Of a stretch of 64,000 nt of DNA, positions 16,201 through 59,627 are shown piece after piece (positions within the stretch are counted from its first letter, which is position 1; every line of letters begins with the position of its first letter). The stretch covers positions 682,001 to 746,000 of the forward strand of contig NC_016459.1 of the NCBI RefSeq assembly GCF_000226115.1. Direction: 5' to 3'. This DNA is from Thermothielavioides terrestris NRRL 8126 (taxonomy: Eukaryota; Ascomycota; Sordariomycetes; Sordariales; Chaetomiaceae). Under the pieces are notes generated by a model. The model did not search any database. It saw only the letters and a program-made list of their open reading frames with translations, and was not told the DNA's origin. Both the position numbers and the translations under genes were made by a program.

Positions 16201-17957
16201 GAGACCCCATTTGTATACTATGTAACTACACCACTTGGCCGAAAGCTTGCAGGAGGCTTGGGGAGCGAGCAGCCGAACCGAGCGGCACTACCCCCAACTT
16301 TCGTACCTTGCTCGGTTAAAGCTGGGGGAGTGCGCCACCACAAACCAAGATAATCATGCATCTTTCCGGATAGGACGGAGCCCCAGCTAGGGCGATAGTT
16401 CCGCATGAGGCGAATGCATTTGTTGTGTGATGTTGCTACCACTCAGATTTCGGGGGGAGTGAGACTCATGAGCCATGCGAATGGCCCTCCTCAAATGGAG
16501 GGCGTTGGGCGCCGGGAGGTTCGGAATGACCATCATATACTTGGGGATGGTTAGCCACCGCGTGCGCAACGAACGAGGAACTTGTAGGGCCGATGTGCTC
16601 GAGACCATGCGATCAGTAGGTACTTTATGTATCCGACGAGCTGGCGGGATCAAGCCGGCCGACGTCACCTACCGAAGGAAACATGAAATCAATAACCGTT
16701 GTGACGGAGTAACACAGCGGATCATAATAAAGTCCGAGACCGAAAGGAAAAAGAGACCGAGAGTGGATATGCCTGGTAGGAGCGGAGATTGACGGGCGAT
16801 AAGTTAGCAACTTGAAGGTCTCCTGGCGAGGTGTAAACGTGAGTTACGCCATTATACCATGGGCATTCCCTGCCATATCCGCCGCCCAGTCCCAAGACAC
16901 ACGTGGGTGTCATTGAGCGGCCCGAATGGGGGTGGCTTGCCGCAATGCATATCGGTGCGTGGGCGGTGCCGGAGTATGCCAAGATGCTGCCTCTGGATGC
17001 GTAGCCTTTTTGGCAGGCTCTCAGGGAGGGTGGTCATCGACTAATACTTGAAACGGGGCACAGACGGTGCTTTGTGGATCAACACTCATACACCGAGCCG
17101 CAGTGTAGCCACGGCGTTTGAGGTTCCTCGCTGAATGCAACCTTGAAGGAATTGGAGGGAGAGGCCAAAATAAGCGTAAATGTTGCCAAGCTCCGACTGG
17201 GCCGCCTCGACCCTGTTACCGCGATATCCGTCACCCAAACGTGATCAAGATCGCACGGCTTGCCAAGGTTGACGATCGTTCCGGATTTGGGAAAAGACCA
17301 AAAAGCTTGGGTTGATCGAGCTGCTAACAATGAAGAACAATTGGTGAGCTACCCAATGTTGGAGGATTTCGGGTTCCAGTTCTTTCGGCTTACCCTGAGT
17401 ATTCCGTGGAACCTGAGTGCAGGAAACGGAGAAGGATCGGAACTCATCCAATCGGGGCCTGTCATCCAGGGTTTGAATCTGCACTGCGACCGCGATGACC
17501 TTGATCACGTAAGTCCGATAAGATGGACCGAAGTACCTTGGTTTCCATCCTTAAGGCCTTCGAGTTCTCTGCCGCGCACCATCCTTCCCTCCTAACGAGA
17601 CAGAACTTGGTCTCCTCTCTCCCGAGACAATTCGGCCCATCTCCTGGACGAATACCTGTGCACATACCTAAGACAATTGCTGCAGTGGCAAGTCACATTG
17701 TGTAAAGCCCTGAGCCAGCGGGGGAAGGGCGGTCTCTCGTAAGTGGACCAATCTCTGATCCTTTCCTGCTCTGTGTCGCGAACCTGTCTCAGACTCGACT
17801 GAGTGGATGCGACAGAGGAGGTTGCGCCGTCGAATCTTAAATAGAACGTGCGTGCCCGGGTCGGCCAGCGCAAGCGGCGCCCGCTCGGCTCCCGCCTTTG
17901 ATTTCCTCGCTCTCGGCATAACGGTTCGCCGGTCGATGGGCACCACCAATACGAGTT
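13263..17957. other. Long intergenic region, no gene recognised
   Basis: About 4.7 kb of normal base composition with only short, mutually overlapping open frames on both strands. None shows a domain, a plausible exon chain or a signal peptide. It may include gene relics too diverged to recognise. The last few hundred bases are the upstream region of the AflR-type regulator. Confidence 0.45.
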
Positions 17958-27715: not shown

Positions 27716-29571
27716 TCAAGCCCTCGTACCGTTCGTACCATTCTGCTGCGCCAGCTTCTTCTGCCACGGCAGCGGCTCGGTGGCAACCTTCAGCGGGCCA
27801 ACGTCGCCGCCCTCTGCCCGCCGCTGCTTCCACGCGTCGATATCGCGGTGGTCGACCCAGTTGCCGTGCAGGCCCAACTTCAGCTTCAGCGGCAGATGGA
27901 TCACCGCCAGCGGGCCCTTGGCCAGGTGCTGCGCGTCGAAGATGACCACGTCGTTGCGCAGCTCGTCGAGGTGGTTCAGCAGCGCGATCAGGTAGCCCTC
28001 GCCCTCGGCGCCGCCCTCGCGCGGGATGAAGGTCGGCTCCTGGAAGGTCATGGTCGGCCCGGCGAAGTAGACGTCCTCCAGGCCGAACTTGCCCTTCAGG
28101 TCGCGCTGCTCGGCCGCGCCGTTCTGCACCGACCCGCCGGCGTGGTAGTGCTCCTCGGACCAGGTGTAGTGGCCCAGGCAGTTGAACAGGCCCCCCGCAG
28201 GCGGGCCGCACTTCTCGAAGTCGTACGGCCGCGACGGGTCTACGACGGCCTGCCAGAAGTGGCGGTACGGCTTGGTGACGAAGCGGTCGTCGATGCGCGA
28301 GAACTCGCCGTTGGTGAGCCAGGTCAGCGCCGGCTTCACGCGCTCGTCGGCCACCCACACGTCGGCGTCTCCGGCGCCGGGGGTGCGAATGGCTGATTTC
28401 TTCGCCTTGGGGTCAAACACCCAACGCACCGTCGGCGAGGTCAAACGGTTGCGCTTGGCGAAGCCGTCGGGCGGTGTGACGTTCTCGTCGGGCGGGAACC
28501 AGAAGAACACGTTGCCGTCGGCCACGGTCAGGTCGAAGACCACCTCGCCCGACGGGAGCTCATAGCACCCTGCTACATGGCCATGGAAACCTGCGCCCTC
28601 CGTCAGCACCGGTACCAGCCGAGCCAAAACTGTCACAACTTGCTGTGTTGCCACCTACCATTGTCCGCCCTGAACCAGGTGATATCCTCGCTCTTTCCGC
28701 CGCGTCTCGGCACCACGGCGTACCACTGGTCCTCGTTGGGGTCCCAAGCAAACTTGTTCCCGCCGCGCTTCATCCTCTCAAGATCCATCTTGATGGGCGT
28801 CAGCGCCAGCACCAGCCAGTTCTTGCTGATGCCGCAGTCGTGGATCATGCCCGCAAACGGCGCCTTGTACCAGCACTCCTCCGTCTTCTTGCCGTCCCGA
28901 TCGATCGTCCACACCGCCACGTCGACGCTGCAGTCCGAGCCGTCGCCGCCCGCCTCGTAGGCAAAGCACACCATCTCCCCGGTGTCTGGATCAAACTTGG
29001 GGTGCGCCGTGAAGGTCGGGCTGAGGATCTGGCCCTCGAAATCGTACCGCCCCAGCGTCTCGAGCGTGACGGGGTCCATCGCGAAGGGCGGGCCGTCCTC
29101 CTTCAGGGCGAGCAGCACGCCGCGCCAGAAGACGACGTTGGTGTTGCTGGCGGTGCGGATGACGCCCTTGACGCTCTCGTTGTCCGTCCACGGGTTGCGG
29201 TACCGGCCGAACAGGCTGCGGCGGGCGCGCGTCTCGTGCACGTAGCGGTCCGTGTGCACGTAGCGCTGCTTGAGGTCGGCGTGGCCGCCGGAGATGCGCA
29301 CCGCCGTGACGGAGCCGTCGCCGTTGAAGTGGATGTCGTCCTCGAACAGCGGCGGGAACCGGTGGTCCGGCTGCACCCGGAAGAAGGTCCCGTCGATGTC
29401 CGCCGGGATCGTCCCGCTGATCTCCAGGTCGAACACGTCGCCCTCGAACCGGGACGGCTTGTTCATCGACGCGAACACCGGCGTGCGCGGGAAGCGGACT
29501 TTGGATGGGTCGGTCAGCCGGTTGTTGGCATAGTTGGAGATCTCGGCTGCGAGCTCGTGGATGTGCGCCAT
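27716..29571 (-). CDS. Carotenoid oxygenase / lignostilbene dioxygenase family protein
   Basis: A 595-residue non-heme iron dioxygenase that would cleave a C=C bond in a stilbene or carotenoid substrate. Two exons (29571-28659, 28590-27716) join at a Gly codon through a 68-nt GT-AG intron. The four iron-ligand histidine contexts are visible: [32 protein letters not shown] and [10 protein letters not shown]. The conserved [15 protein letters not shown] carries the lysine that contacts the hydroxyl of stilbenes in Neurospora CAO-1. There is no signal peptide, so it is probably cytosolic. Resemblance to lignostilbene/resveratrol-cleaving enzymes suggests aromatic catabolism rather than retinal synthesis; that is inference. 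The SnoaL-like gene upstream lies on the same strand. Confidence 0.88.
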
Positions 29572-30390
29572 GGTTGGGTTGGGGGGGCCGCGCGGGGCCG
29601 GTGGTTACTGGGGATAGATAGATAGGACTAGGAGGGTGGCGGAGAGGGAGACGGGGGTGTAACGGGGATGGGTTTGGATGGCTGCACGGGTGAGATGATG
29701 ATGATAGCGCTGTGATGTGGTCTTGGTGACGGAGAAGGGAGACTTGGGGGCTAAGTAGGTTGCTTGTAGTGTGGGTGCTCAAGCTCGAGGCGAAACGTTG
29801 AGCCTCGGAACAATCTACCGAGAGCCATGTGGCTACCCCGGATCGTCGGGTGGACCCCGCAGCCCGGCGCACGGCATTGTGGATTCGGATAATCGGATGC
29901 GGGCCGGCGGATGGCAGTGGAGTACGATGGCAAACACACCATGATGTACTGTACGTACCCAGTATATGGATATACTGCTTTGATAGGGGTGTCTGAGCTG
30001 GGATGAACCGGGTAAGTGAGTGCGGGGCAGGCCGTGTTTCTCCAACTTTCGGCAATGAAGAGCAAGGGCCTTCGTTGGCTGTGGAAGTGAGGCAAGCTCG
30101 GAGTTCGGCTAAACGACGAAACTGCTCGCCGGGCGACCCGTGGGATGGTCACAGGTCGATGATGAGGCTGCTCATGGGGGTGGGAGAGTGGCAGGGTGAA
30201 GGCCTTGGCAAGAAGGAGCACGCTGACACTCGCCTGGCGAAGCATAGAGTATCTAGTTGCGCAGGTTTGCGGTTTTCAAACGCCAATTCACCCTATTCTG
30301 TGATAATTCCAATGGCATCAAAGAGACTGCAAGTTGGCCCATGCCTCCTCAGCCTGCCGCCCTTTGAACCCCTCAAACTGGCACCCCACG
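29572..30390. other. Intergenic, promoter region of the dioxygenase gene
   Basis: 820 bp between two minus-strand genes. The stretch just upstream of the dioxygenase ATG is rich in TCCC/CCACC and pyrimidines on the coding strand, as is common for fungal promoters. No gene is seen. Confidence 0.45.
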
Positions 30391-31375
30391 CTACTCCGCC
30401 TTGTTCTGAACCAGCTCCGGGAGCACCTTGTCCCCGGGCTTGGACTCGCGCGAGCTGGCACCCGGCCGGCTCTGGCCCTCGGGCAGGGCGAGGGTGAGCG
30501 GCGGGTCGCTCGTGCTGACATCGGCGCCGTACACCGGGGCGCGCAGCGCATCGGGCGCCGTCGGCTTGCCGGTGACCGGGTGGGGATAGTGGAAGGGCAC
30601 GACGCGGGTGTCGGGCCACAGCATCTTCTGCTCGAAGATCTCGTCCGGGCCCAGCGGGTCCTCCGGGTAGGTGACGGTCGGCCAGGGCACGTAGTTCTTC
30701 TTGGTGTGGCTCCAGCCGCTCTCGAAGTTGGCGTGCCAGAAGGGGAAGTAGCGGTACCGGAACAGCTTCCACACGCCGTTCTCCTTGATGTACTCGTTCT
30801 CGTACAGGCCGCCCTCCCACCACTGGCGGTGCCCGCCCGGGTAGTACTCCTCGATGCTCTGGTGGGTGCCGGCCTGCATGAGCGCGCGCATGCGGCACCA
30901 GGCGTGCGTGCCCGTCGCGTCGACGTCGACGATGTCCTGCATCATGATGTGGTCCAGCAGCCAGCCGTACACGGGTCCGTTGCGGCCGTTGACGAAGGTC
31001 GCCTGGAAGCGACCCTTGTAGAGGCGCTTGATGCCCGCCTTGCCGCGGTACCGCGCGCCGAGGAACTCGACGTAGGCGTCGGGGTGATCCGAGAACATGT
31101 CGACCACCTGTGGTGGCCAGCCGGAGTCAGCCCGCTGCCAGGAGGCAGGGCACCCTGATACCGGGCCATGCTTGCTATCTCACCTCGTCGTACAGGCACT
31201 TGTCGAGGTAGTAGCCATACTTGAAGTGCGTCTTGCGGACCTCGGCCTCGTCTGTGTCCAACGCGTCAGCGAGGGTCTTCGGGTCTAGAGAGAACACGAC
31301 CTGCCTGCCACGCGCGAGAGCTCCTTCTGCAAAGCCTGCACCTGCTTCTTGAGTTCGGCAAGTTCCTGCTCCATG
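30391..31375 (-). CDS. SnoaL-like (NTF2-fold) protein with a frameshift in exon 1
   Basis: The protein belongs to the fungal SnoaL-like family (NTF2-type alpha/beta cone, related to aldol cyclases and dehydratases). Exon 2 (31107-30391) is intact: MFSDHPDAYVEFLGARYRG, HAWCRMRALMQAG, QWWEGGLYENEYIKENG, and the family hallmark LWPDTRVVPFHYPHPVTGK. A 77-nt intron (31184-31108) joins it to exon 1, which ends HFKYGYYLDKCLYDE. Exon 1 begins with a coiled-coil ATG at 31375 (MEQELAELKKQVQALQKELS). That start is out of frame with the rest by one lost (or two gained) bases near 31,310, at a GGCAGGCAGG repeat. The exon lengths sum to 908 nt, not a multiple of three. It could be a real lesion or a base-call error. 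Confidence 0.75.
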
Positions 31376-34175: not shown

Positions 34176-35750
34176 TCAAGTGCCATAACCCTTTCTTTGA
34201 ACCTTTTTGTCCGGTGTCCTCCCTTTCCTCCTAGCCCATACGGGTGTATCGCCTGATTCACCGTGGCTCAGATTTTTTTGTCCCTCCTCTTGAGAGCCAG
34301 CAATGGCGGCCTGGCACCCCGTCGCCGCACCCCGTCGCTGAATCTGGGCTTCCACCCTCTTGGCGAACTCTTTCAGCCTCATGCGCCGTAACCCCCGGCG
34401 CCCCATTGGCTGCTCTCCGTCTTGGTCCTCTCGTTGCTCTCCTTCAAGCTGTTGCTGGCCATGCTTTCGCGGCGAGAGAGCATGTGGCTGTCTCCGGGCC
34501 CTCTTGGCGAGAACGCGAGCCCGGTGGGCGACGAAGAGCGGCCTGAGGCTGGGGAAGACGCTGGTGAAAGGGAAGGGGCTGGTGAAGGGGTGGTCAGGCC
34601 GGATAGCGTTGTCGCCGCGCTGCCACACCGGCTTGTTGGTCTTCCGGGCGGTCTTGGCAAGCAAGTCGGCCCGGTCGTGCGGTTCGATGCAGTGGCCCGG
34701 GACCCAGGCGTACTCGACCGACACGAAGATGCCCGACATGTCCCTCAGAAGCTTCAGCTTTGCCTCCTCCTCCTCAAGGCGGCAGAAGAGTTGTTCGAAC
34801 GCGCCGCCATGCTGCCGCGGCCTGGTGCGGCTCCTAGAGATTCCGTCCAGGCACACCTTCGAATCGCTGAAGACTGTTACCGAGACGGAGAGCGGGAGGC
34901 TGTGCGGTCTTCGCGACACGGCTATGCTGGACACCTCCCTTCTGGCCACGACTAGGGACTCGATGATGGCCACCATTTCGCATAAGCTGTTGTCGGCGGC
35001 AACCTCAATCGGCCAACCCAGTCCCATTTCCTCGCCGTGCCAAGGTTCGCCTGGGGCGTAGCGGCGGAAAGAAACACCGTAACCTCCGACAGCTGAGGGC
35101 GACTTAAATGAGGCGTCGCAGAATATCGCCAGTCGGATGTCCTGTGCTGTCGACTGGTAGGCTGCGGCTTCCAACGCTTTCTTGATGGCTGCTTCGTCGG
35201 GGCGGGCTGGGGAGTCTGAGATGCAGAGATACAATTAGCCATCGGCGAACGAGGAAGAGACTGCACTGTCTTATAGATCCGTGGGATATCCGGCGTCAAC
35301 GCGAGCTTTGCCTTGGCCGTCACCGCCGCCAGCGTCAGGCCTCCAGGGCCTGCACGTTCTGGGCCACAGCACCGTCGCGGCTTAAGTCCTCGACTCGGAA
35401 GGTGTACACCTTGCCCGGCTTTCCCTTTCGGCCCCTCGTTGCCATTTGGCCTCAACGAGGGGCCGAAAGGGTTGCCGTGGAGCCGTCTTCGCGACGCGGC
35501 GCTGGCTGGGCCTCCGCCAGGCGGGCCACCGAAACTGGAGCTTTCTTGCCAAGCTGGCTCGTCGATCTGACGCGATTTTGGATTGAGAAAAAAGAGAATA
35601 AATGGTACTTACTCTCGTCAGAACCGGCGCGGGTGCGCCCCTTGTGGCTGCACATCTCTTGGCTCTTTGCTGGCGACCTCGTCGTCGCCGGCTTGGAAAC
35701 TTGTCGTCGTTGCGGAAGAGGTCAAAGCCTTTGTCGCGATGGAAGTTCAA
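34176..35750 (-). pseudogene. RNase H-domain protein gene, broken by frameshift, nonsense and start loss
   Basis: The main frame (35234-34176) carries a complete RNase H-like core: LAIFCDASFKS (first Asp), NSLCEMVAIIESL (Glu), VTVFSDSKVCLDGI (Asp) and YAWVPGHCIEPHDRADLLAK (His and last Asp), then a long basic tail. It starts right after a TAA at 35235-35237. Upstream, in the adjacent frame, comes LALTPDIPRIYKTVQSLPRS, which should run straight into LYLCISDSPARPDE. Restoring the frame needs one base near 35,245 and loss of the TAA. Further upstream a block NFHRDKGFDLFRNDDKF (35750-35613) precedes a perfect GTAAGT donor, and the matching acceptor is at about 35,566, but no ATG precedes it. Such stand-alone RNase H-like genes are common in Sordariomycetes. 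Function unknown. Confidence 0.6.
35423..35471. repeat. Perfect 19-bp inverted repeat with 11-nt loop
   Basis: CCCTTTCGGCCCCTCGTTG at 35423-35441 is the exact reverse complement of 35453-35471, separated by 11 nt. It lies inside the upstream exon of the broken RNase H-domain gene. Confidence 0.95.
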
Positions 35751-41624: not shown

Positions 41625-44600
41625 ATGGATTGTTTCGCAGCCCCTGCGATTCGGACCCGGGATGCAATCGAGGACATCTGGGGTCCCCGGACACCGTACA
41701 AAGACGAATGGCCCACCCGGGTCGATTATGCTCTAGATGAGGAGCCCGAAGCTTGGGTCCAGAGCGCATGTGTGCTGTGCAGGTGCGTTTGGACCGAGCT
41801 CTCTGTTCCTGCAGTTCGTGGAGCGTGGCTGACAAATGGCCGGAACCCGTGAAGCAATGGCTGCGGCCTGGACATCGGCGTCAAGGATGGCAGGGTTGTT
41901 GGGGTCAGGGGCAGGGCTACCGACCGTGTAAACAAGGGCCGCTTGGGGCCGAAGGGCCTGACTGGGTAAGCAGCTTGCTACTGGCCCCGGCGCTGGCTGT
42001 TGCTCACGACCCGCGCACGACACAGGTGGAAGGCAATTCACAGCAAGGACCGCTTGACCTATCCCATGGTGCGGAAGAACGGCCGGCTGGAACGGGCGAC
42101 GTGGGATGAGGCGATGGGCCTCATCGTGGCCAAGTCAAAGGAGTTGCAGAAACACCTCACTAACCACAGCATCGCTTTCTACACCAGCGGCCAGCTGTTC
42201 CTGGAGGAGTACTATGCCCTGGCGCTCGTGGGTAAGGCCGGGCTTCACACTCTCCACATGTGAGAGGATCCCCGTTCACCTACTATGAGACTGGAACAGG
42301 CGGCCTGACACTGTGAACCGGTTCCAGGGACGGAAACACGCGACTATGCACGGCCACGGCCGCCGCCTCGATGCGGGAATCTTTCGGCTCTGACGGGCAG
42401 CCGGGCTCCTATGCTGACATTGACTACACTGATTGCCTCTTCATGGTGGGACACAACACCGCAACGACGCAAACCGTTCTGTGGTCGAGGATCCTGGACC
42501 GTCTGGAAGGGCCACTCCCCCCAAAGCTCGTCGTGGTGGACCCTAGACTGTCCGAGACGGCCCGCAAAGCGACTCTGCACCTGGCGCCGCGGGTGGGCAC
42601 CAACCTCGCGTTGCTGAACGGAATCCAGCACCTCATGTTCAAGAATGGATGGATCGACGAGGATTACGTGTCCAAGCACGTCATCGGTCGAAGCGAATCG
42701 GAGAAGGTGGTCGGTGAGTACGACCCCGACACCGTCGAGAAAGTCACCGGCGTGCCGGTCAAGCAACTGGAAGAGGCGGCGCGCATCATCGGGACGGCGA
42801 AGAGCTTGGTGTCGACGGCGCTCCAAGGCGTGTACCAGTCCAACCAGGCGACCGCCAGCGCATGCCAGATCAACAACATCAACCTCCTGCGGGGCATGAT
42901 TGGCAAGCCTGGCTGTGGGATCCTGCAGATGAACGGCCAGCCGACGGCCCAGAACAACCGCGAGGCCGGATGCGACGGCGAGTTTCCTGGCTTCCGCAAC
43001 CATCAGAACCCAACCCATATGAAGGAGCTGGCAGAACTGTGGAACATCGACCCAATCCACGTGCCACACTGGAATGAGCCGACGCATGTGCAAAACCTGC
43101 TCAACTACATCGAAAGCGGCTCGGTCAGGATGTTCTGGATCAGCGGGACCAACCCGCTCGTCAGTCTGCCGAACTTGACCCGCATCCGCAACCTGTTGAC
43201 GCAGCCCGGCTTGTTTGTCGTGTGCCAGGACATCTACATGACGGAAACCGCCGCGATCGCCGACGTCGTGCTCCCCGCGGCGCAGTGGGGCGAGAAGACG
43301 GGCTGCTTCACCAACGCGGACCGCACCGTCCACATCTCGCACAAGGCCGTCGAACCGCCGGGCGAGTGCAAGTCGGACTTGGACATCTTCCTCGACTACG
43401 CCAAGAGAATGGGTTTCAAGGACAAGGACGGAAACGACCTGATCCCCTGGACGACGCCAGAGGAGGTGTTCGAGGCCTGGAAAAAGGTGTCGGCCGGGCG
43501 GCCGTGCGACTACACCGGACTGAGCTACGAGCGCCTCACGGGGGGGTCGGGCATCCAGTGGCCCTGCAACGAGAAGAATCCGCAGGGCACGGAGCGGCTG
43601 TACACGGACGGCGTCTTCCCCACTGACATTGACTACTGCGAGAGCTTCGGCCACGACCCCGAGACCGGGGCGCCGTACACAAAGCAGCAGTACATGTCCA
43701 TGAACCCAGCGGGCCGAGCCATCCTCAAAGCGTGCCACTACTCGCCGCCGCTCGAGGAGCCGGACGAAGAATTCCCGCTGAGACTCTCGACGGGCCGGAA
43801 GGTCCACCAATTCCACACCAGAACCAAGACGGGCCGGACGGCACTGCAGAAAGCGTGCCCGGAGCCCGAGGTCAGGGTGTCGGAGAAGGACGCCGCCAGT
43901 GCCGGAGTCTCGGACGGCGAGATGGTGATTGTGCGGTCAAGGCGCGGGGCAGTGGAGCTGAAGTGCAGCGTCGGGGGCATCGCCGAGGGGCAGGTCTTCG
44001 TCCCTTTCCACTTCGGGTACTGGGATTCGCAAGACGGGCGTGCCAGAGCGGCGAACGAGCTCACCTTCGGTAAGCACCCAAGGCTACACCACCGCCCAGC
44101 GTGCACTTTGGTTTCAGCGCTCACTCACCCTCCGCGCAGACCGCTGGGACCCCATCTCCAAGCAACCCTACTTCAAGTCCGGCGCCGTGCGGCTCGAGAA
44201 AATCCCCTCGCCAACCAGCACCAACACGAGCACCGGCGCGCCGCACATCCGCGAGCAGCACTCCGACGCCATCCGCAAAGCCGCCGCCAAATCCGCGGCC
44301 GCCACCACCGCCAGCGCGAGCGCGAGCGACCTGGCCGCCGGCCGCGAGCGGCAGCTCGAGCATTGGCTGGGCGAGACGTACGAGACAGCCGCGCAGCTGG
44401 AGCAAATCTACACGACACTGCTGCCGTCGCTGATCGACGACCTCGAGGTGGAGGCCGGCCTGCGCGTGCTGCGGCGCATCGGCGAGGATATGCGGGCCGC
44501 GCTTGCGCCGCACGCGCGGCGTCACGGCTACGATGTGGAGGACCGCCTGCGCAGCGGCAGTAGCAGGCGGCGAGCGGCGCAGGCGCTGCGCGACGCGCTG

Positions 44601-44870
44601 TTCCCGCCCGATCGGGAGAGCGAGACGACCGCCCGGCGCTCGCCCCTCGAGGTTCTCCGCGCCCTGCAGGCGCTGGCCGTGTACCTGGCGCACATCGAAG
44701 TCGGGCTGACGGCGCTGCTGCCGGCCGCGCAGGCGCTGTGGGACGAGGCGTTTGTTGAGGCGGTGATCAAGGCGCAGGGCTGTCTCGACCGCATGCAGGG
44801 CTGGGTGCGGCACCAGGTGAAGGTGCGCAGTCCGCAGACGCTGGTGGTGCCGGTCAGGAAGGAGGAATAG
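41625..44870 (+). CDS. DMSO-reductase-family molybdopterin oxidoreductase (formate dehydrogenase/assimilatory nitrate reductase-like)
   Basis: A 991-residue prokaryote-type molybdoenzyme in five exons (41625-41782, 41855-41965, 42026-42259, 42328-44069, 44140-44870); all four introns are GT-AG, 60-72 nt, and every junction restores the family sequence. The N-terminal iron-sulfur motif is C49-x2-C52-x3-C56; the usual fourth Cys in GRLCxKG is Gly here (NKGRLGPKGL), while the conserved Lys remains. NTRLC with Cys175 matches the Mo-ligating Cys of Nas/Nap-type enzymes, followed by GSDGQPGSYADID. Further landmarks are LFMVGHN, KLVVVDPRLSETA, WISGTNPLVSLPN, DVVLPAAQWGEKTGCFTNADR, LRLSTGRKVHQFHT and FVPFHFGYWD. 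A helical tail of about 230 residues (from about 44,180) replaces a redox domain. No signal peptide or NAD/FAD domain is seen, so the electron partner and substrate are unknown. Bis-MGD and MobA dependence are inferred from the family and from the neighbouring genes. Confidence 0.93.
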
Positions 44871-45521
44871 GTGATGGGAGATGGAAATGGGGTTGTTGAT
44901 GGGGCGATTGGTGTCTGAATGTAGTTGGGCTCGTTGTTATTGTCTGCCGTTTCTGATGCTCCGCTGTTTTGTCGAAGACGACTTAAAGCAGGCCTGAGCC
45001 AGCCAAACCGCTACGCTATCGAATTATTACTGATCTTGCTCGAACGCACCCATGATGAGAAGCTAGAAGGTTGATCTTCCACATAGTCACCCGCTCGTAT
45101 CACAGCCCGACTAGCTATGAGTTGCATGCTTGCTTGCGGTGCTCTGTCCCCGCCAACCAAGGACCCTAGCTATGCCTCTACCAGCCAGCAGCGGATCACC
45201 ACGCCTGAACGCGATTTAGGCACGCTAAAAAGCAGGGTTTGAGAGACATATTCGAACCAAGGCAGTTGCGTCATGATTACGTACGAGAATCGACGAGCAG
45301 ACTCGCGTCCGGTCCGAATCCGGACGCGTCTGGGAAACCGGAATTGCGGCTCTGTGGTGATTCAAGTGAGCGGACGGTGATTACGATTCAACTCGGTCGA
45401 GAAAGTCGATACCTGCTGCGCTGCCGTTTTGGTGGGCCTTCCCAACAGTCCTTGAATTGTCTCCCACCTGACAGCCACTAGACCAGAGTCACACCTCAGC
45501 CTCCTCAACCGTTGGCCTAAG
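44871..45521. other. Intergenic between molybdoenzyme and moeA genes
   Basis: 650 bp holding the 3' UTR of one gene and the promoter of the next, both on the plus strand. No gene recognised. Confidence 0.5.
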
Positions 45522-46868
45522 ATGACACTGTCCTACGCAGCTGGACTTGCAAAAGTCCTTGAGGTTGCTCGCCAACAACACAACACCCGTCAGAAGCCTG
45601 AAGAGAATGTGCCGTTACAGGACGCTATCGGTGGCGTGCCGGCAAGAGCCGTTCTCAGCCCCAGGTCGATTCCGGAGTACGATACTTCGGCCATGGACGG
45701 GTACGCCATCCGCTCCCATGACACGACCACGGCGTCTCCAGACACGCCGGTGGTATTTAGGGTAATGGGCACCGTGGCGGCGGGAGACGAGCCCGAAAAT
45801 GGCTTAGACGCCGGGCCAGAAGACGGGGTACCCCCTTGCGTGGAGATCATGACGGGCGCGATATTCCCCGAGGGCTACGACGCCTGTGTGAAAGTGGAAG
45901 ACACGGTCGCCGTGCGAGGACCTGATGGCCGCTGTGCTGGCTGCATTGCCGTCACGAGACGAATTTTATCAGGCGAAAACAAACGCTTCGCTGGAAGCGA
46001 TATCCGTCAGGGACACGCCGTGCTGAAGCAAGGGGACACCGTCCAACCAGCCCACATCCTGCCCCTGGCATCTCTTGGCGTCGCCGAAGTTCCGTTAGTT
46101 CGGAGAGCTCGCGTGGGCGTATGGTCGACGGGGAAGGAGATGACGAACGGAAAGGCTGGCACCAAGGATGCGAACGGCCCGTATCTCACGGCGGCAATCA
46201 AAGAGATGGGGTTGGAGGCCGAGTTCCTGGGCGTGCTGGATGACGACCTGGCCACTTTACGCAGCCACATCCGCAAGGCAGCAGACGCTGAACGGTACGA
46301 CCTGCTCCTGACGAGCGGCGCAGTGTCGAAGGGCAGGTTCGACTACATTCGGGCCGCCCTGGACGAGATGGGGACTGAGATCATGTTTCACGGGTTGTAC
46401 ATCCGGCCGGGGCATCCTGTGCTTTTCGGCTTGGTCCCCAGCAAGGAAAGCAAGGCAGCATTCTTCGGCCTGCCGGGAAACCCTGGGGCCGCCGCTGCGT
46501 GCTTCAGGCTTCTGACTGTGCCGTATCTCCGAGCACTTCAAGGACAGCCTCAGGAGCAGCCTATTTGGGCGAGCTTACGGCAGAGAACCGACAAGCGGCA
46601 GGACGCGCACAGCTGTGCCTCCAAGCAGAACAGGGACATTTTCCGCCACGGCGTCCTCTCGACGTCACCCAGCGGGGGCCTGTTCGCCGAAGCCAGCAAC
46701 GAGCAGAGCCCCGCGAAACTGGGCCCCTTCCGAGCCGCCAACTGCTGGATTCGGTTCCGGCCCGAGCCCGACTCAATACCCCCCGGGACCGACAGCCTCC
46801 CGCTCGTCGAATGCTACCCCATCTCGCCGACAGGCGCCATCCGCCTCGCACCCTGCCTCCCCAACTGA
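45522..46868 (+). CDS. moeA: Stand-alone MoeA-type molybdopterin molybdenumtransferase
   Basis: A 448-residue single-exon enzyme that would insert molybdate into adenylylated molybdopterin. Motifs are SIPEYDTSAMDGYAI (Asp54 onward; the MoeA SAMDGYA signature), VMGTVAAGDEP, EIMTGAIFPEGYDACVKVED, GVWSTGKEM, LLLTSGAVSKGRFDYI (the GGVSxGxxD loop with its Asp) and FFGLPGNPGAAAACF. The usual fungal housekeeping enzyme CnxE is a larger fusion of MogA-like and MoeA-like domains. This protein is bacterial in size and has only the MoeA part. It lies 650 bp behind the molybdoenzyme gene on the same strand and its last 96 nt overlap the 3' end of mobA on the other strand. It probably serves the neighbouring molybdoenzyme. 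Confidence 0.92.
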   Translation: MTLSYAAGLAKVLEVARQQHNTRQKPEENVPLQDAIGGVPARAVLSPRSIPEYDTSAMDGYAIRSHDTTTASPDTPVVFRVMGTVAAGDEPENGLDAGPEDGVPPCVEIMTGAIFPEGYDACVKVEDTVAVRGPDGRCAGCIAVTRRILSGENKRFAGSDIRQGHAVLKQGDTVQPAHILPLASLGVAEVPLVRRARVGVWSTGKEMTNGKAGTKDANGPYLTAAIKEMGLEAEFLGVLDDDLATLRSHIRKAADAERYDLLLTSGAVSKGRFDYIRAALDEMGTEIMFHGLYIRPGHPVLFGLVPSKESKAAFFGLPGNPGAAAACFRLLTVPYLRALQGQPQEQPIWASLRQRTDKRQDAHSCASKQNRDIFRHGVLSTSPSGGLFAEASNEQSPAKLGPFRAANCWIRFRPEPDSIPPGTDSLPLVECYPISPTGAIRLAPCLPN

Positions 46869-47645
46869 TCTCTCCTCCTCCAACACCCTCCACACCGCGC
46901 GCCACTCCGCAGGCGTATTCGCCCCTCGCAACCTCCCCACCTCATCCCCATCCACACCCACCACTCTGCCGCCCAAATCCCTCACCACCCTCACCGGCCC
47001 GACGCCCTTGCCCTTCCCCTTCCCCCTCCCCACCAACCCCCGTCCTTCCTCCTCCCCCTCCTCCCCTTCCTGGTTCTCCACCCGGCGCCGCAGCTCCCCC
47101 AGCGCCGCCGGCCCCCACACAGCAACAAGCGGCTCGCAGAACCCGTCCGCGTTCCGGAGACACGTCACGGGCGGCGCGTATGCCGCGCATAGCGCCCGTA
47201 GCATGCCCGGCGTCAGCAGCGGGTAGTCGACGGCCAGCACGAGCCAGGTGGCCGCCGGGCGGGCGCGGAAGGCGGCGAGCAGGCCCGCGGCGGGGCCGGC
47301 GGAGCGGGCGGCGGGGTTGGGGCGCGCGTCGCGGAGGAGGGCTATGCTTGGTTTGTTTGGGTTGGGGTTTGGTGCTGATGCCGGCGCCGGCGGGGCGGTG
47401 GTGGGACGGGGAGAAGTGGGCGGTGAGGGTGGGTCTTGGCTTGGGGTGAGGGATTGCAGGAAGCGGTCGAGCGGCGAGTCCTGGGCGAGGGAGATGTAGA
47501 TGGTTGGTGCGTCGGGGCAGGCGCGGGCGAGGAGGTCGAGCTGGTGCTGGTAGAGCGGGCGGCCGTCGGGCATGGGCAGGAGATGCTTTGGCGAGCCCAT
47601 GCGGGTGGACTTGCCGCCGGCGAGGAGGAGGGGGGTGAAGGACAT
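46773..47645 (-). CDS. mobA: MobA-type molybdenum cofactor guanylyltransferase
   Basis: A 290-residue single-exon nucleotidyltransferase that would attach GMP to Mo-molybdopterin to make MGD. The N-terminus has the GTP-binding signature LLAGGKSTRMGSPKHLL (Gly10-Lys20). GPAAGLLAAF matches the GPLAG motif, WLVLAVDYPLLTP the metal-binding D-x-P motif, and EPLVAVWGPAALGELR and RGANTPAEWRAV the C-terminal PLVALW and NTPED motifs. Two low-complexity insertions, a Pro-rich one after about residue 65 and a Gly/Glu/Lys-rich one near residue 195, are absent from bacterial MobA (about 190-200 residues). It is convergent with moeA. The core eukaryotic molybdenum cofactor pathway has no MobA step. Confidence 0.88.
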   Translation of the reverse strand: MSFTPLLLAGGKSTRMGSPKHLLPMPDGRPLYQHQLDLLARACPDAPTIYISLAQDSPLDRFLQSLTPSQDPPSPPTSPRPTTAPPAPASAPNPNPNKPSIALLRDARPNPAARSAGPAAGLLAAFRARPAATWLVLAVDYPLLTPGMLRALCAAYAPPVTCLRNADGFCEPLVAVWGPAALGELRRRVENQEGEEGEEEGRGLVGRGKGKGKGVGPVRVVRDLGGRVVGVDGDEVGRLRGANTPAEWRAVWRVLEEERSVGEAGCEADGACRRDGVAFDEREAVGPGGY

Positions 47646-48403: not shown

Positions 48404-48980
48404 ATGTTGATCATGAAGCCCTTCTTCACAACACTGCTTTGTTTTTTCGCGTCGGCGGCCTCGGCCGCCAAACACGCAAAGACGCCTGCCGCACCCGGCC
48501 TGACGTACTTGTATTCTCTCAATTGCACGTTGGGACCGTCCATCGCGGTGGGCAGTGGCCCGCATGGCACGCGTACCGTGATTCCCATCACCGGCGGAAC
48601 CTTCTCCGGCCCGAGACTGTCAGGTATGGACACGATCCCTTCCCTCCCCCCGCCGGCTTCCGACTCGCAGCAGCGTAAGCAATCTGACTGCGGTCCCAGG
48701 CAAGGTCCTCGACCTGGGCGCGGACTGGGGGCTGGTCGACCGGAACGGCACCTTCTCGGCCGACACGCGGTATCAGCTGCAAACGGACGACGGCGCGAAC
48801 ATCTTCATCCGCACGAGCGGGCCGGCGCAGCCAGACGGGCATCTGCACCTGCGCATGGAGTTCGAGACGGGTAGCGCCAAGTACTATTGGCTCAACAATA
48901 TTGTCGCGGTTGGCATTCTGACGACGGGGAACGGCTATGTGCTGATTGACGGGTGGCAGCTGGAGAGCCCCAAGGCTTGA
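48404..48980 (+). CDS. Secreted DUF3237 protein
   Basis: A 166-residue protein in two exons (48404-48623, 48700-48980; 76-nt intron, Gly codon split). The N-terminus LIMKPFFTTLLCFFASAASA is a good signal peptide; translation may start at 48404 or 48413. The DUF3237 fold is recognised from the LTYLYSLNCTLGPSI opening, GTRTVIPITGGTFSGPRLSG, VLDLGADWGLVDRNGTFSAD, TRYQLQTDDGANIFIRTSG, and the YYWLNNIVAVGILTTG and GYVLIDGWQL end. The molecular function of the domain is unknown. Secretion and one NGT glycosylation sequon suggest an extracellular or cell-wall role. Nothing connects it directly to the molybdenum genes beside it. Confidence 0.85.
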
Positions 48981-49446: not shown

Positions 49447-51896
49447 ATGTCGTCCAGCTATCCGCCGCCGCCGCCCGCACCCACCGACGCCTCAACGGCG
49501 ACGGCGACGGCGACAGCGCCGAACTCGGACAACGCCCCGCAGGTCGCGGATGCCGACAGCCAACCCGCGAACGCTCAAGCGCAATACTCGGCCGACGCCG
49601 CTGCAGCTGTGGCCGCGGCAAACCATGGCCTCCAGGCTCTCCAGGCTGCCGTTGCAGCTCCTGCTTCCGTGTCGTCTCCGGGCGATGCCTCGTTGATCGC
49701 CGCTGCGCCGGCTGGCGGTGCGCCCGTCGGCGTCTCTCCTACCCCGAAAGCAACCCGGCTTCGCCGCGCCTGCGACATGTGCAGCCAGCGGAAAGTCAAG
49801 GTGCGTCCCCCCTCCCCCATCCGTCCAGTGTACTTTCGCTACTTCAGCAGATGCGGCATGAACTAATCCTCAGGCTGTGTGGCTTGCAGTGCAACGAGAC
49901 GCAGCCATGCCGGCCGTGCGTCGACCTCAGCGTCGATTGCACCTTCAACCGCGTAATGAAGCGTCGTGGCCCGCCAAACAAACACGCAGAGGCCGCCCGG
50001 GCCGCCAAGCAACAGCGGCTCGAGCCTAACATCAGCCCGGGCCCGCACAACGCAGCCGAGACCCTCATTTCCATCGCCGGCGGCCAGGACGCCCAGCAGG
50101 TTCTCGACGCCGAGTCCATTGCGCCCTGGCCGGTGCTGACGCTGCTGATCGACGACTTCTTCACCTACATCCACCCGCTCGCGCCCTTCCCCCACGAACC
50201 GACCTTCAGGATGTCCTTCACAGCGCGGCAGGACAGGACAAACCGGGGATTCCTGGCGCTGCTGGCCAGCATGATCGGCTGCCTGGTAGCTTCGTTTCCC
50301 CGGACCGCGCGCCTGCACCTCAAGACGCAGCAGCATGGGATGAAGATGTACCCCAAGGCCATCACCCTGATCGACCGCTGCCGCACCGTCGCGCTTGAAG
50401 CCCGCGGTCCGACCTTCTACAGCAGAGACGACATCACGGTCTACGATGCCGCGACTAGCTATTTCCTGGGTCTGGCAGCCGCGTACACCATGCAGTGGAA
50501 GGTGTGCCGCCGCTTCATGGCCGAGTGCATGGCCTTCATCCGGGAGCTAGGGTACCACAAGCCCCGCGACTTGGGCTCCTCCATGTTCGGTGTGACCTAC
50601 CGGGGACCGTCCTTCAACCACGTCGAGGACCAGCTCGGCAAGCGCATCTTCTGGTGCATGTTTGTCGGCCTTCGGTGAGTCTGCTTAGTTGTCGAACAAG
50701 ATCCCCTCGCGACTTTCTCGCTAACACATCCCAGCTCCATGCACCAGCTCGGAAGCCACCACAGCGACGTCGTCCTTCCGCCGCCGACGCCCACTGAGCC
50801 GTACCCAGAGCTCCCTGTGGAGGTGGACGATCAGTACATCCTGCCCCACCAAATCTTGGGCCAGCCAGAAGGCGTTGTCTCCCTTCTCACAGGCTTCAAC
50901 CAGGGCATCAAGATCTACATGACCATGAACGGCCTTGTCAGCGTTGAGGTGTCATATGGGATATCCACGCTGCCGTTCAATGACCAAAAGGCAATGCTAG
51001 AGGAGAGCCTCCAAGCGGTCAAGCAGGTGATGGACGGCCTGCCGCGAGAGCTGACCATTGAGCTGAATGGCGGGGCCGGAAACAGCCAGGCTCACGGCCC
51101 GTCCGGCCTACATCCCGCCGGTCCCCAAGCCGGCGGTTTCGACGACAGCAACGGCGGGCTGCACTACTACCCCATCGGCTTCGCAGGCATGCAACCGCCC
51201 AACCTTCGTCACAAACCGAGCCCCCAGCTCCAACGGCGCCGCCTGCTGCAGTACGAGATTCAGAAAGCCAACATCTACGCGTCGCAGCTCGCCACCCGCT
51301 CCTACTACGTCGAGCGCTACCTCAACCTGCGCGACGCCCACCGCGAGCACGCCCGCGCCCAAGCCGCCCAAGCCGCCCAAGCCGCCCAGGCCTCCTCCTC
51401 TTCCTCCACCACCACCACGGCCGCAGTCGACACCTCCACCAAATCGGTAGCCGCAGCCGCCCGACAGCACGCGGCCGCCAAGCAGCACCCCCACCACCCC
51501 AACCACCCGGCCGACCCCGTCGACGCAAGCATGACGGCCGAGCGCGAGCTCATCGTCCAGCACCTGCTGACCGTGCTGACTTCCATCTCGCAGCGCAGCA
51601 TGGAGCCCAACGGCGCGTCGCTGATCAACAAGATCCGCCAGGTCGCCAGCACCCTCGTCAACGACGACCCCAAGCGCAAGGGCCCCGTCGCCGTCAAGAA
51701 CCAGGAGTCCCTCAGCCGCTTCGTCGAGATCCTCATGCGTCTGGAGCGCGTCCCGCCTGGAGGCGGGCCTGGTGGGGGCGCCGGCGTCGCCGTTGGCAAT
51801 GGGGATGACGAGGAGGTTGAGTTGAGGAGCTGGGCGGATTTGAGGGATTACCAGGTGAGGTTTTTGCAGGGCGGCGGGTTTATGAATTTGCCTTGA
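49447..51896 (+). CDS. Zn(II)2Cys6 transcription factor with fungal-specific TF domain
   Basis: A 766-residue nuclear regulator from three exons (49447-49800, 49890-50674, 50735-51896), all GT-AG. The zinc cluster CDMCSQRKVKCNETQPC spans the first intron, with Cys109, 112, 119, 125, 128 and 135, and is followed by a basic VMKRRGPPNKHAEAARAA linker. The middle homology region is visible as WPVLTLLIDDFFTYIHPLAP, FLALLASMIGCLVASFP, YDAATSYFLGLAAAY, ECMAFIRELGYHKP and LGKRIFWCMFV. An Ala-rich N-terminus and Ala/Gln/His low-complexity tracts at about 51,350-51,500 lie outside the domains. Position next to the DUF3237 and molybdenum genes makes a regulatory link possible but unproven. Confidence 0.9.
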
Positions 51897-57467: not shown

Positions 57468-58250
57468 CTGCGGGTGCGGGTGCAGGTGCAGGTTTAGTGA
57501 TGGTGATGGCGGGCTGTCGCAGTGATACTGTTGTTTTCGCCGCAGAGAACAGGATAGGCGCACAGACAGGTGCTGGGGCAAGACGGGCCATCCACGGCCA
57601 TTTCGGCCGTGAACATTGCTGTGGCAAACACCGTTCCATGATGTCGTGCCCGGAGGTTCGCCGGAGATGACAAGGCTTCGGGCCACTCTTGTAGATGCAG
57701 CTGCGAAGTCCTGTGGTTGGGCAACTGTATTCTTAAGCAATCCATGGGCGTACCGGATCCGCCATACCGGCCTGAGAACCCGCGTCCTGGGGCACCGGCC
57801 GGGATACCGGGGGGGGGGTCACCGATAGCCGCGCCGACACCCGCTCCGAGATCCGGCCGGGTCCATCAGACCGAATACTCCGTACACCCGCTGCGTATCG
57901 GCATCATGTTTGGTCGAGGCAACTGCGAGGGGCACATAATTTGTAGGGCTGAAGGTCCCCGACCGCGATATTTCACACAGGAAGCTGGTCTCCATGATGG
58001 TCGTCAGGCGAAGGTGACGCCGACGCTTCTTGATTCCGCGTAGCAGCTGAAGCAGCGAGGCCCACCCGTGGGACGGCAAAGTCAAATCTTTGCGGACTAG
58101 CGAATGACGTGCTGCCGCACGGTTCTCTCTCTGCGCCGAGCGTCCGTTTCAGGCCGTTGTCTTCACTTTCAAAGACCACAAGTCACTCAACCGTTACAAC
58201 GAGCGCCGGGGTTGCAGTTCTCACCACACTCGCTCACTTCACAACCCACC
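57468..58250. other. Intergenic / upstream exon of the candidate gene and SQR promoter
   Basis: Contains possible 5' exon sequence of the candidate minus-strand gene and the promoter of the sulfide:quinone oxidoreductase gene. Nothing more can be supported. Confidence 0.4.
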
Positions 58251-59627
58251 ATGGCTCCCGGTCGAGTTCTCGCCAGGCAAGCGGCCGGTGCTGCGGCGGC
58301 TGGCCGACATTCACTTACCAAACATACCCCGGCCTCATACCGGAGCTTCGCATCTATCTCACAGTCCCCGGTCAGCCCGGCAAGGAACCACAGGGTTGTT
58401 GTCGTCGGTGGTGGCTCCGCTGGTCTCGCCATCAGCCACCAGCTCCTGCGGTCTGGCAGGTTTGCCCAGGACGACATCGCCATCGTCGACCCGGCAGAAT
58501 GGCACCACTACCAGCCCGGCTGGACGCTCGTCGGCGGCGGCCTCAAGGACAAAGAGCAGCTCAGGCGCCCGCTGGCGTCTCTGGTCGACCCTAAGCTCAA
58601 GCTCTACTCCGAGCCCGTTTCTAGTTTCTCGCCTGACGACAACAGCGTGCTGCTCGGCAACGGCTCCACGCTCACGTACGACCAGCTGGTCGTGGTGCCG
58701 GGCATCAAGGTCGACCTGAATAGCATCAAGGGCCTGCCGGAAGCCGTGTCCAACCCGGACTCCAACGTATCCTGCATCTACACCTACGAGACGGTCGACA
58801 AGACGTTCAAGACCATCCAGCGCCTGCGCGGCGGACAGGCCATCTTCACGCAGCCGGCCGGCGTGATCAAGTGCGCGGGCGCGCCGCAGAAGATCATGTG
58901 GCTGGCGCTAGACCACTGGAAGCGCGCGGGGCTGTACCAACCGCAGCAGGGCGGCAGCTCGTCGTCGCCCATACAGATCGCGTTCGCGACGGGCCTGCCC
59001 GTCATGTTCGGCGTGCCCAAGTACAGCGCGGCGCTGGAGGCGCTGCGGCAGGCGCGCGGCGTCGAGGGCCTGTTCTCGCACGACCTGGTCGAGGTCGACG
59101 GCGAGACGGCCGTGTTCGCGGGCCCGGACGGCCCGGTGCGCCGCCGGTTCGACCTGCTGCACGTCGTGCCCAAGATGGGCGCGCACGCCTTCGTCAAGCA
59201 GAGCCCGCTGGCGAACGAGGCCGGGTTCGTGGACGTGGACGACGCCACGCTGCGGCACAAGCGGTACGCGAACGTGTGGTCGGCCGGCGACGCCAGCAGC
59301 CTGCCCACGTCCAAGACGGCGGCGGCCATCACGGCGCAGGCGCCGGTGCTGGTGCGGAACCTGCTGCGTGCGCTGGAGGGCGGCGCCGAGCCGCACCCGG
59401 GCTACGACGGCTACACGTCGTGCCCGCTGCTGACCGAGTACGGGAAGGTGATGCTGGCCGAGTTCAAGTACGGCGGCGTGCCGCAGGAGACGTTCGCCAG
59501 GTTCGGCTGGGACCAGGCCACGCCCAGGCGCGCCTTCTACCACCTGAAGAAAGACTTCTTCCCGTGGGTGTATTACAAATCGATGGTCAAGGGCACCTGG
59601 GGCGGGCCGAAGGGGTGGATTAATTAA
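58251..59627 (+). CDS. Sulfide:quinone oxidoreductase, mitochondrial (HMT2/SQOR type)
   Basis: A 458-residue FAD enzyme of the inner mitochondrial membrane that oxidises sulfide and passes electrons to ubiquinone. The start at 58251 has a good context (CCCACCATGG) and is followed by an Arg/Ala-rich presequence of about 40 residues. The FAD motif VVVVGGGSAGL is at residues 49-59, with EWHHYQPGWTLVGGG soon after. The two redox cysteines are Cys208 (VIKCAGAPQK) and Cys391 (TSCPLLTEYGKVMLAEF), matching the pair in human SQOR and fission-yeast Hmt2. WSAGDASSLPTSKTAAAI is the second FAD-contact motif. It ends YYKSMVKGTWGGPKGW, as in fungal relatives. It is intronless and complete. The upstream open frame to 58104 is probably 5' UTR. 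Confidence 0.93.
   Translation: MAPGRVLARQAAGAAAAGRHSLTKHTPASYRSFASISQSPVSPARNHRVVVVGGGSAGLAISHQLLRSGRFAQDDIAIVDPAEWHHYQPGWTLVGGGLKDKEQLRRPLASLVDPKLKLYSEPVSSFSPDDNSVLLGNGSTLTYDQLVVVPGIKVDLNSIKGLPEAVSNPDSNVSCIYTYETVDKTFKTIQRLRGGQAIFTQPAGVIKCAGAPQKIMWLALDHWKRAGLYQPQQGGSSSSPIQIAFATGLPVMFGVPKYSAALEALRQARGVEGLFSHDLVEVDGETAVFAGPDGPVRRRFDLLHVVPKMGAHAFVKQSPLANEAGFVDVDDATLRHKRYANVWSAGDASSLPTSKTAAAITAQAPVLVRNLLRALEGGAEPHPGYDGYTSCPLLTEYGKVMLAEFKYGGVPQETFARFGWDQATPRRAFYHLKKDFFPWVYYKSMVKGTWGGPKGWIN

What the first reader, a model, noticed from the sequence alone, without database searches (positions are those of the whole stretch)
41625..47645. Fungal bis-MGD molybdoenzyme module: oxidoreductase, MoeA and MobA side by side
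Seen: a DMSO-reductase-family oxidoreductase with an NTRLC Mo-ligand motif, a MoeA without the MogA domain, and a MobA with LLAGGKSTRMGSPK, in 6 kb. Known: the standard eukaryotic molybdoenzymes (sulfite oxidase, nitrate reductase, xanthine oxidase families) use Mo-MPT without GMP, their cofactor pathway ends at Cnx1/CnxE/gephyrin, and bis-MGD enzymes with MobA are prokaryotic. Inference: this is a dedicated bis-MGD enzyme and its cofactor-maturation pair in an ascomycete, probably of bacterial origin and since fitted with four introns. I know of no characterised fungal equivalent.
Basis: partly seen in the sequence, partly recalled or inferred. Interest (0 to 1): 0.95.

Follow-up and report, generated by a model that had tools for sequence, protein, structure and literature searches.

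The report
Fungal bis-MGD molybdenum enzyme gene module
A fungal chromosome carries three neighbouring genes that look like a bacterial-type molybdenum enzyme and the two proteins that would finish its special cofactor, a form of molybdenum cofactor that reviews describe as absent from eukaryotes.

Summary
A 991-aa NapA-like oxidoreductase in five exons (41625-44870), an intronless MoeA without MogA (45522-46868) and a MobA-like protein (47645-46773, minus) lie on a 4.8-Mb fungal contig. In the genome search MobA's family rang only here, and PF00384 only here and in a complex I subunit (NuoG). So this is the only candidate bis-MGD enzyme found, beside an ordinary gephyrin-like protein and a canonical nitrate reductase.

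The family is widespread in fungi. The named fungal copies form one clade inside a bacterial family, often on one contig with MoeA or MobA. In some Trichoderma species the oxidoreductase and MoeA (MobA less clearly) share a Coniochaeta-like history, so the genes seem to move together. Intron positions are conserved in a second fungal contig; dN/dS is about 0.14.

New details: the fourth Fe-S cysteine is Gly almost family-wide; the Mo-ligand Cys is followed by Thr, not Met (NapA) or His (FDH); the C-terminal 176 aa are a ferritin-like (YciF-like) bundle that many bacteria encode as a separate small gene.

Reviews call the dinucleotide cofactor and DMSO-reductase enzymes prokaryotic only. Bound GMP, substrate and electron donor are untested; nitrate is my best guess, weakly supported.

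The parts
41625..44870 (+). Oxidoreductase gene (NapA-like, 991 aa), five exons 41625-41782, 41855-41965, 42026-42259, 42328-44069, 44140-44870
   Evidence: fold match of the relative P0003 to NapA
41783..41854 (+). Intron 1 (72 bp), inside the Fe-S cysteine motif
41966..42025 (+). Intron 2 (60 bp)
42260..42327 (+). Intron 3 (68 bp), just before the Mo-ligand motif
44070..44139 (+). Intron 4 (70 bp)
41769..41864 (+). Three Fe-S cysteines C49, C52, C56 (CVLCSNGC), split by intron 1
41946..41954 (+). Gly84 where NapA has the fourth Fe-S cysteine, followed by P85 and K86 (RLGPKG)
42347..42352 (+). Cys175 (predicted Mo ligand) and Thr176, motif NTRLCT
44340..44867 (+). C-terminal ferritin-like four-helix domain (176 aa), homologous to a small separate gene beside bacterial relatives
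45522..46868 (+). MoeA-like molybdotransferase, 448 aa, single exon, no MogA domain
46773..47645 (-). MobA-like guanylyltransferase, 290 aa, single exon; 3' end overlaps that of MoeA by 96 bp
47586..47627 (-). MobA nucleotide-binding motif LLAGGKSTRMGSPK

Best explanation
The locus is a self-contained eukaryotic bis-MGD module. The ordinary pathway (a MoaA gene, a gephyrin-like protein) makes molybdopterin. The module's MoeA then takes part in loading Mo into a pool for this enzyme, and MobA adds GMP from GTP, giving bis-MGD (both steps inferred). The oxidoreductase binds bis-MGD with Cys175 on Mo and passes single electrons through an atypical three-cysteine Fe-S cluster to reduce an oxyanion (inferred). 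Nitrate to nitrite is my best guess (about 0.4). The C-terminal ferritin-like domain is the fused form of a bacterial partner protein, probably for docking the unknown electron donor or holding the apo-enzyme (inferred). The oxidoreductase came from bacteria, probably once and long ago, and has since been inherited and at times moved between fungi together with MoeA and perhaps MobA.
For: Domains and gene structure. Fold: best PDB match of the relative P0003 is NapA of D. desulfuricans, target-normalised TM 0.87-0.89 (AlphaFold pLDDT 79.8). Genome search: PF12804 only here; PF00384 only here and in a gene that passes the NuoG cut-off, 659.7 against 470 bits. A gephyrin-like fusion (two MoCF_biosynth stretches, MoeA_N, MoeA_C), MoaA and a five-domain eukaryotic nitrate reductase lie elsewhere. 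Named fungal rows are one side of a branch, SH-aLRT 100, inside a bacterial family (29 fungal of 59 rows). 23 of 74 named fungal copies share a contig length with MoeA and/or MobA even in lists cut at 120. T. ghanense and kin: oxidoreductase and MoeA both group with Coniochaeta, and Trichoderma monophyly is rejected (p-AU 1e-5 and 2.3e-4). dN 0.15, dS 1.11 against L003. [quoted passage not shown] A Curtobacterium plasmid carries enzyme, small gene, HPP, MobA and MoeA together.
Against: MobA and MoeA score far below NCBIfam equivalog cut-offs (MobA 49.7 against 151.85; MoeA 261 against 440). One fungal relative, L003, has a MYND-finger gene and no MoeA in the 2.2 kb downstream, and 51 of 74 named fungal copies showed no partner in the cut lists. 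Residues that mark nitrate reductases are changed (Cys-Thr, missing fourth cysteine), and six of 13 close bacterial relatives have lost all three remaining Fe-S cysteines. The Mo-ligand loop of the model has pLDDT under 50 (residues 171-189). The host already has a normal nitrate reductase. No electron donor found. The tree does not show where MoeA came from. MobA and MoeA were detected beside the enzyme in only 1 of 20 bacterial loci. No expression data.
Confidence: 0.75

Rival explanations
1. Same bis-MGD module, but the reaction is not nitrate reduction: a stress or detoxification enzyme acting on another oxyanion or oxide (chlorate, an N-oxide, a sulfoxide).
For: Mo-ligand neighbour is Thr, not the Met of NapA. 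The fused domain resembles the stress protein YciF, and a gene with KGG 'stress-induced' repeats lies 1.8 kb from the Modicisalibacter copy. On plasmids the neighbours include genes I read as stress-type (universal stress protein, Na+/H+ antiporters, copper-binding four-helix protein), and no nirB/nirD is named in the gene tables, which are incomplete (searches had no gene table, only hypotheticals). The host already has a canonical nitrate reductase.
Against: HPP genes beside 8 of 20 bacterial loci and one formate/nitrite-type transporter gene; best fold match NapA.
Confidence: 0.4
2. A formate dehydrogenase: the cofactor module serves formate oxidation.
For: Best NCBIfam score is Fdh-alpha, 502.6 bits; formate dehydrogenases are the next fold matches.
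Against: Below the Fdh-alpha cut-off of 666; no Cys/Sec-His pair; no FdhD match in the genome (the family rang in 8 of 14 control genomes).
Confidence: 0.1
3. The enzyme uses bis-molybdopterin without GMP, like E. coli YdhV, and the MobA-like protein is another nucleotidyltransferase.
For: A nucleotide-free bis-MPT enzyme exists (PMC9103625, abstract start in the listing). The window's MobA and three fungal relatives score below every MobA cut-off.
Against: MobA-type features are kept in the window's protein (LAGGKSTRM, VDYPLL, EPL; ANT where the fungal consensus has NVNT), the MobA model outscores the cytidylyltransferase MocA model (49.7 against 23.8 bits), and it is the only family member found in the genome.
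Confidence: 0.12
4. Bacterial contamination or a dead gene.
For: Closest non-fungal relatives are bacterial.
Against: A 4.8-Mb contig, four spliceosomal introns conserved in position, many fungal orthologues, purifying selection.
Confidence: 0.01

Closest known systems
Periplasmic nitrate reductase NapA (D. desulfuricans, 2NAP/2JIM)
   Same: Fold over the catalytic part (target TM 0.87-0.89, 31-32% identity), Cys at the Mo site, CxxCxxxC motif and the following Lys.
   Different: Fourth Fe-S Cys is Gly; Thr in place of Met after the Mo Cys; fused C-terminal helical domain; in a eukaryote.
Bacterial 'nitrate reductases' of Halomonas, Hymenobacter, Deinococcus, Streptomyces, Rhodococcus plasmids and Modicisalibacter (no family name known to me)
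   Same: 52% identical (best segment) with a match over residues 11-987 of the fungal P0003 in the isolate Modicisalibacter luteus; same RLGPK motif and Cys-Thr; same C-terminal domain, fused or as a neighbouring gene.
   Different: MobA and MoeA detected beside only 1 of 20 loci; six of 13 have lost the Fe-S cysteines.
MobA (1FR9, 1E5K; E. coli by recall)
   Same: Nucleotide-binding motif and domain family (the fungal relative P0123 was the query).
   Different: Distant (E 1.6e-5 to 1.2e-4), low-complexity insert in the window's protein, fungal.
MoeA (1FC5, E. coli by recall) / Cnx1 / gephyrin
   Same: MoeA_N and MoCF_biosynth domains; best solved match is MoeA 1FC5 at 162.5 bits against 132.3 for Cnx1 and 130.5 for gephyrin.
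   Different: Single-domain, no MogA; a separate clade from the host's own gephyrin-like protein.
YciF/YciE (DUF892) ferritin-like stress proteins
   Different: 9% identity; Foldseek E no better than 8e-3; the acidic and His positions conserved in fungal rows form no evident di-iron site; no Pfam match for the fungal domain.

Membership tests
DMSO reductase superfamily (bis-MGD oxidoreductases) | Molybdopterin, Molydop_binding and Molybdop_Fe4S4 domains over cut-off | tested here: met
DMSO reductase superfamily (bis-MGD oxidoreductases) | Protein ligand to Mo at the aligned position (Cys175) | tested here: met
   Cys in 54 of 55 family rows, a gap in the other
DMSO reductase superfamily (bis-MGD oxidoreductases) | Bound bis-MGD (GMP released on hydrolysis) | not testable with these tools
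   needs protein
NapA/NasC nitrate reductases | NCBIfam equivalog cut-offs | tested here: not met
   NasC 407 against 1100, NapA 341 against 904
NapA/NasC nitrate reductases | Four-cysteine [4Fe-4S] site | tested here: not met
   fourth position Gly in 27 of 29 fungal rows (2 gaps), window included
NapA/NasC nitrate reductases | Cys-Met at the Mo site | tested here: not met
   Thr in 28 of 29 fungal rows (the other row lacks the motif)
NapA/NasC nitrate reductases | NapA-like fold | tested here: met
   on the model of P0003
NapA/NasC nitrate reductases | Nitrate reduction | not testable with these tools
   needs assay
Formate dehydrogenase | Cys or Sec followed by His; FdhD partner in the genome | tested here: not met
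MobA | MobA-like NTP transferase domain (PF12804) | tested here: met
MobA | Curated MobA cut-off (TIGR02665) | tested here: not met
   49.7 (window) and 51.3 to 61.1 bits (three fungal relatives) against 151.85
MobA | LAGGxxxRM and C-terminal NVNT-type motifs (the choice of motifs is recalled) | tested here: inconclusive
   the window has LAGGKSTRM, but ANT in place of NVNT; NVNT is the majority form in the 21-row alignment
MobA | GTP-dependent MGD synthesis | not testable with these tools
   needs assay
MoeA | MoeA_N and MoCF_biosynth domains over cut-off, no MogA | tested here: met
MoeA | MoeA_C domain | tested here: inconclusive
   not detected at E 0.001 in the window's MoeA; present in the host's gephyrin-like protein, weak in the Curtobacterium MoeA
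YciF/DUF892 | Ferritin-like four-helix fold | tested here: met
   (helical-bundle caution applies)
YciF/DUF892 | Pfam DUF892 cut-off | tested here: not met
   no match in the fungal domain; 16.7 bits against 23.7 in a Deinococcus small gene

The most novel reading that the evidence does not exclude
Fungi make the dinucleotide molybdenum cofactor bis-MGD, with their own MobA, for one dedicated enzyme of a family held to be exclusively prokaryotic. The enzyme carries a three-cysteine Fe-S site and a fused YciF-like domain, gives fungi a second, cytosolic oxyanion (probably nitrate) reductase beside the classical one, and its genes travel between fungi as a unit.
Probability: 0.65. Interest if true: 0.93.

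Novelty: new variant of a known kind. Interest (0 to 1): 0.85.

Why it matters
A review states that all E. [quoted passage not shown] Another paper says that DMSO-reductase enzymes occur exclusively in prokaryotes (PMC4633490, abstract). A survey of 250 eukaryotic genomes searched eukaryotes with human SO, XO and mARC proteins, so by its own method it would not have picked up this family (PMC6147048, passage, section 7). If the cofactor is confirmed, eukaryotic molybdenum biology gains a cofactor form, an enzyme family and a pathway step, testable in culturable fungi, and a candidate for nitrate or oxyanion reduction whose gene is not the classical nitrate reductase.

Tried and rejected
Nitrate assimilation as the sole explanation: weakened, because the host has a complete eukaryotic nitrate reductase. 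MoeA as a copy of the host's gephyrin-like gene: no support, the tree puts it in a clade of its own, but with long branches and a weak root, so the source is unresolved. Donor operon with all three genes: only one candidate (Curtobacterium), and its MoeA is just 29% identical to the window's, so co-transfer from that type is unproven; a near copy (L042) is cut by the record's edge right after the enzyme. A NarJ/TorD-type chaperone: no PF02613 match in the genome (rang in 5 of 14 controls), and the C-terminal domain folded as ferritin-like instead. Di-iron chemistry in that domain: no shared acidic/His site evident in fungi. Plasmid search with a fungal MobA (P0123): no match at E 1e-5. Plasmid search with the window's MoeA: 182 records, none at 60% identity or more. 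Papers on fungal NapA-type genes: nothing on point in the listings; only open-licence papers are searched. The shrimp 'molybdopterin oxidoreductase' transfer report (PMC3750580, passages) concerns an iron-sulfur binding subunit in another host.

The Trichoderma groups tested were chosen after searches suggested them, so the p-values are not for a group named beforehand. The MobA tree there had no other Trichoderma to compare, and its key branch (92/89) is not starred. In the oxidoreductase tree the chosen outgroup was not one side of any branch: Aspergillus flavus fell among Sordariomycetes, unlike. Row choices: 29 fungal rows (28 listed homologues and the window) and 13 unnamed ones of the 120 listed were put in the tree; P0067 had no contig length and was left out. 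The outgroup rows L005 and L006 are translations of the matched stretch only.
Full report
What is there. The spliced oxidoreductase reads as one 991-aa frame over five exons, 41625-44870, with the three Pfam domains of the DMSO-reductase superfamily over cut-off. MoeA (45522-46868, plus) and the MobA-like gene (47645-46773, minus) follow, single-exon and tail to tail. The window is C3:682001-746000 of a 36.9-Mb assembly in six contigs, C3 being 4.79 Mb. The best protein match, 97% identical and named Thermothielavioides terrestris (P0001), suggests the species. That public model lacks 27 residues that our frame keeps, and the public MobA model is only 163 aa (P0121).

Only one client found in the genome. 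PF12804 (MobA family) rings only here. PF00384 rings here and at C6:2014428; the latter gene passes the NuoG cut-off and has the complex I ferredoxin-like domains. The ordinary pathway is present: a gephyrin-like frame on C2 with two MoCF_biosynth stretches, MoeA_N and MoeA_C, MoaA on C4, three PF00174 genes, of which one has all five domains of a eukaryotic nitrate reductase (L025). No FdhD and no NarJ/TorD family match was found.

Distribution and history. Of the 120 best oxidoreductase matches 75 carry an organism's name, all of them fungi by my reading. In a tree of 59 rows the 29 fungal rows (28 homologues and the window), including Saitoella, the basidiomycete Crassisporium and the chytrid Rhizophlyctis, fall on one side of a branch with SH-aLRT 100, inside a bacterial family. 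Four of the 13 metagenome rows, of unknown origin, lie within that branch and one is its sister, so 'fungal clade' holds for the named rows. In bacteria the family is patchy: 2 of 151 genomes of the Modicisalibacter family and 3 of 398 of its phylum at E<=1e-200, counting the centre itself. Among 72,556 plasmid records 31 match at E<=1e-100; 20 of these at about 53% identity or more, the other 11 (34-45%) more distant.

Linkage and co-transfer. The partner lists stop at 120, so these are lower bounds; lengths shifted by 1, 2 or 10 bases gave 0 or 1 matches. Locus tags are consecutive in Thermocarpiscus (6060-6062), Verticillium, Fusarium coffeatum and F. lateritium. Against this, the fungal contig L003 has a MYND-finger gene, not MoeA, downstream. 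In T. ghanense and T. longibrachiatum (oxidoreductase) and T. ghanense and T. gracile (MoeA) the genes group with Coniochaeta instead of other Trichoderma (100/98 and 100/98; p-AU 1e-5 and 2.3e-4). MobA of T. ghanense, T. longibrachiatum, T. gracile and T. aethiopicum groups with Triangularia and Coniochaeta at 92/89. In T. ghanense all three lie on a contig of one length. I read this as the genes moving together; the limits of these tests are told under Tried and rejected.

Constraint. All four introns occur at the same codons and phases in L003. Between the window and L003 codon-position differences are 17, 11 and 44%, dN 0.153, dS 1.11; the C-terminal 170 codons are looser (58% identical; 29, 27, 42%).

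Active site. Against NapA (2JIM) the Mo-ligand Cys aligns, but NapA's next residue is Met and that of the FdhF subunit 7QV7 is His, whereas here it is Thr; NapA's fourth cluster Cys aligns with Gly (query P0104, which shares these residues with the window). Over 59 rows, Gly at that place holds in 27 of 29 fungal rows (2 gaps), 13 of 13 metagenome rows and 12 of 13 close bacterial rows (one Asp); Thr in 28 of 29, 13 of 13 and 13 of 13. The first three cysteines are kept in 28, 27 and 28 of 29 fungal rows, the rest being gaps. In six of 13 close bacterial rows (Streptomyces, Rhodococcus, Georgenia) all three are gone (such as SILHSNGDA). So the cluster is probably atypical, and dispensable in some relatives; arsenite oxidase, recalled as a three-Cys [3Fe-4S] enzyme, is the nearest precedent. 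The Mo-ligand loop itself is modelled poorly (pLDDT under 50 at 171-174 and 176-189).

Function. Nitrate rests on the NapA fold, on names given by annotators, and on HPP genes next to the enzyme in 8 of 20 bacterial loci, two of which (L026, L028) look like one replicon. [quoted passage not shown] Neighbouring stress-type genes and the Thr point elsewhere. I therefore give nitrate about 0.4. The M. smegmatis work (PMC7816997, abstract, passages, sections 15 and 19) reports bacterial assimilatory nitrate reductases that differ in electron donor, NasN using NADPH; no donor is visible here.

Novelty. Families are known; their combination in a eukaryote, and a fungal MobA, run against explicit statements in print. 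Databases already list these proteins under automatic names, so sequence existence is not new; in nine searches of open-licence papers I found no description in the listings.

Noticed in passing
L033, L034, L035, L036, L037, L039 (enzyme genes): Plasmid copies in Streptomyces, Rhodococcus and Georgenia have lost all three Fe-S cysteines while keeping the Mo-ligand Cys: a DMSO-reductase-type enzyme that seems to have dropped its electron relay.
   Followed up: partly
P0007, P0097, P0314, P0328, P0166: T. ghanense, T. longibrachiatum and T. gracile carry Coniochaeta-like copies of module genes, unlike T. barbatum (oxidoreductase, MoeA) and T. arundinaceum (oxidoreductase).
   Followed up: yes
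L003: A 5.4-kb contig filed in a Mucilaginibacter MAG looks like fungal DNA: a five-exon copy of the enzyme and a MYND-finger gene.
   Followed up: yes
window 58101-59624: Pyr_redox_2 protein that by eye looks like a sulfide:quinone oxidoreductase.
   Followed up: no
window 27719-29604, minus: Carotenoid-oxygenase (RPE65) gene split into two frames, and a SnoaL_4 protein at 30394-31179.
   Followed up: no
window 17922-19607: Zn2Cys6 regulator with an AflR domain, perhaps part of a secondary-metabolite cluster.
   Followed up: no
window 48582-48977 and 49983-50675: A DUF3237 protein and a Fungal_trans regulator lie just beyond MobA; whether they go with the module is unknown.
   Followed up: no
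window 34179-35234, minus: Weak RNase H match, below cut-off, perhaps a retroelement remnant or a stand-alone RNase H.
   Followed up: no
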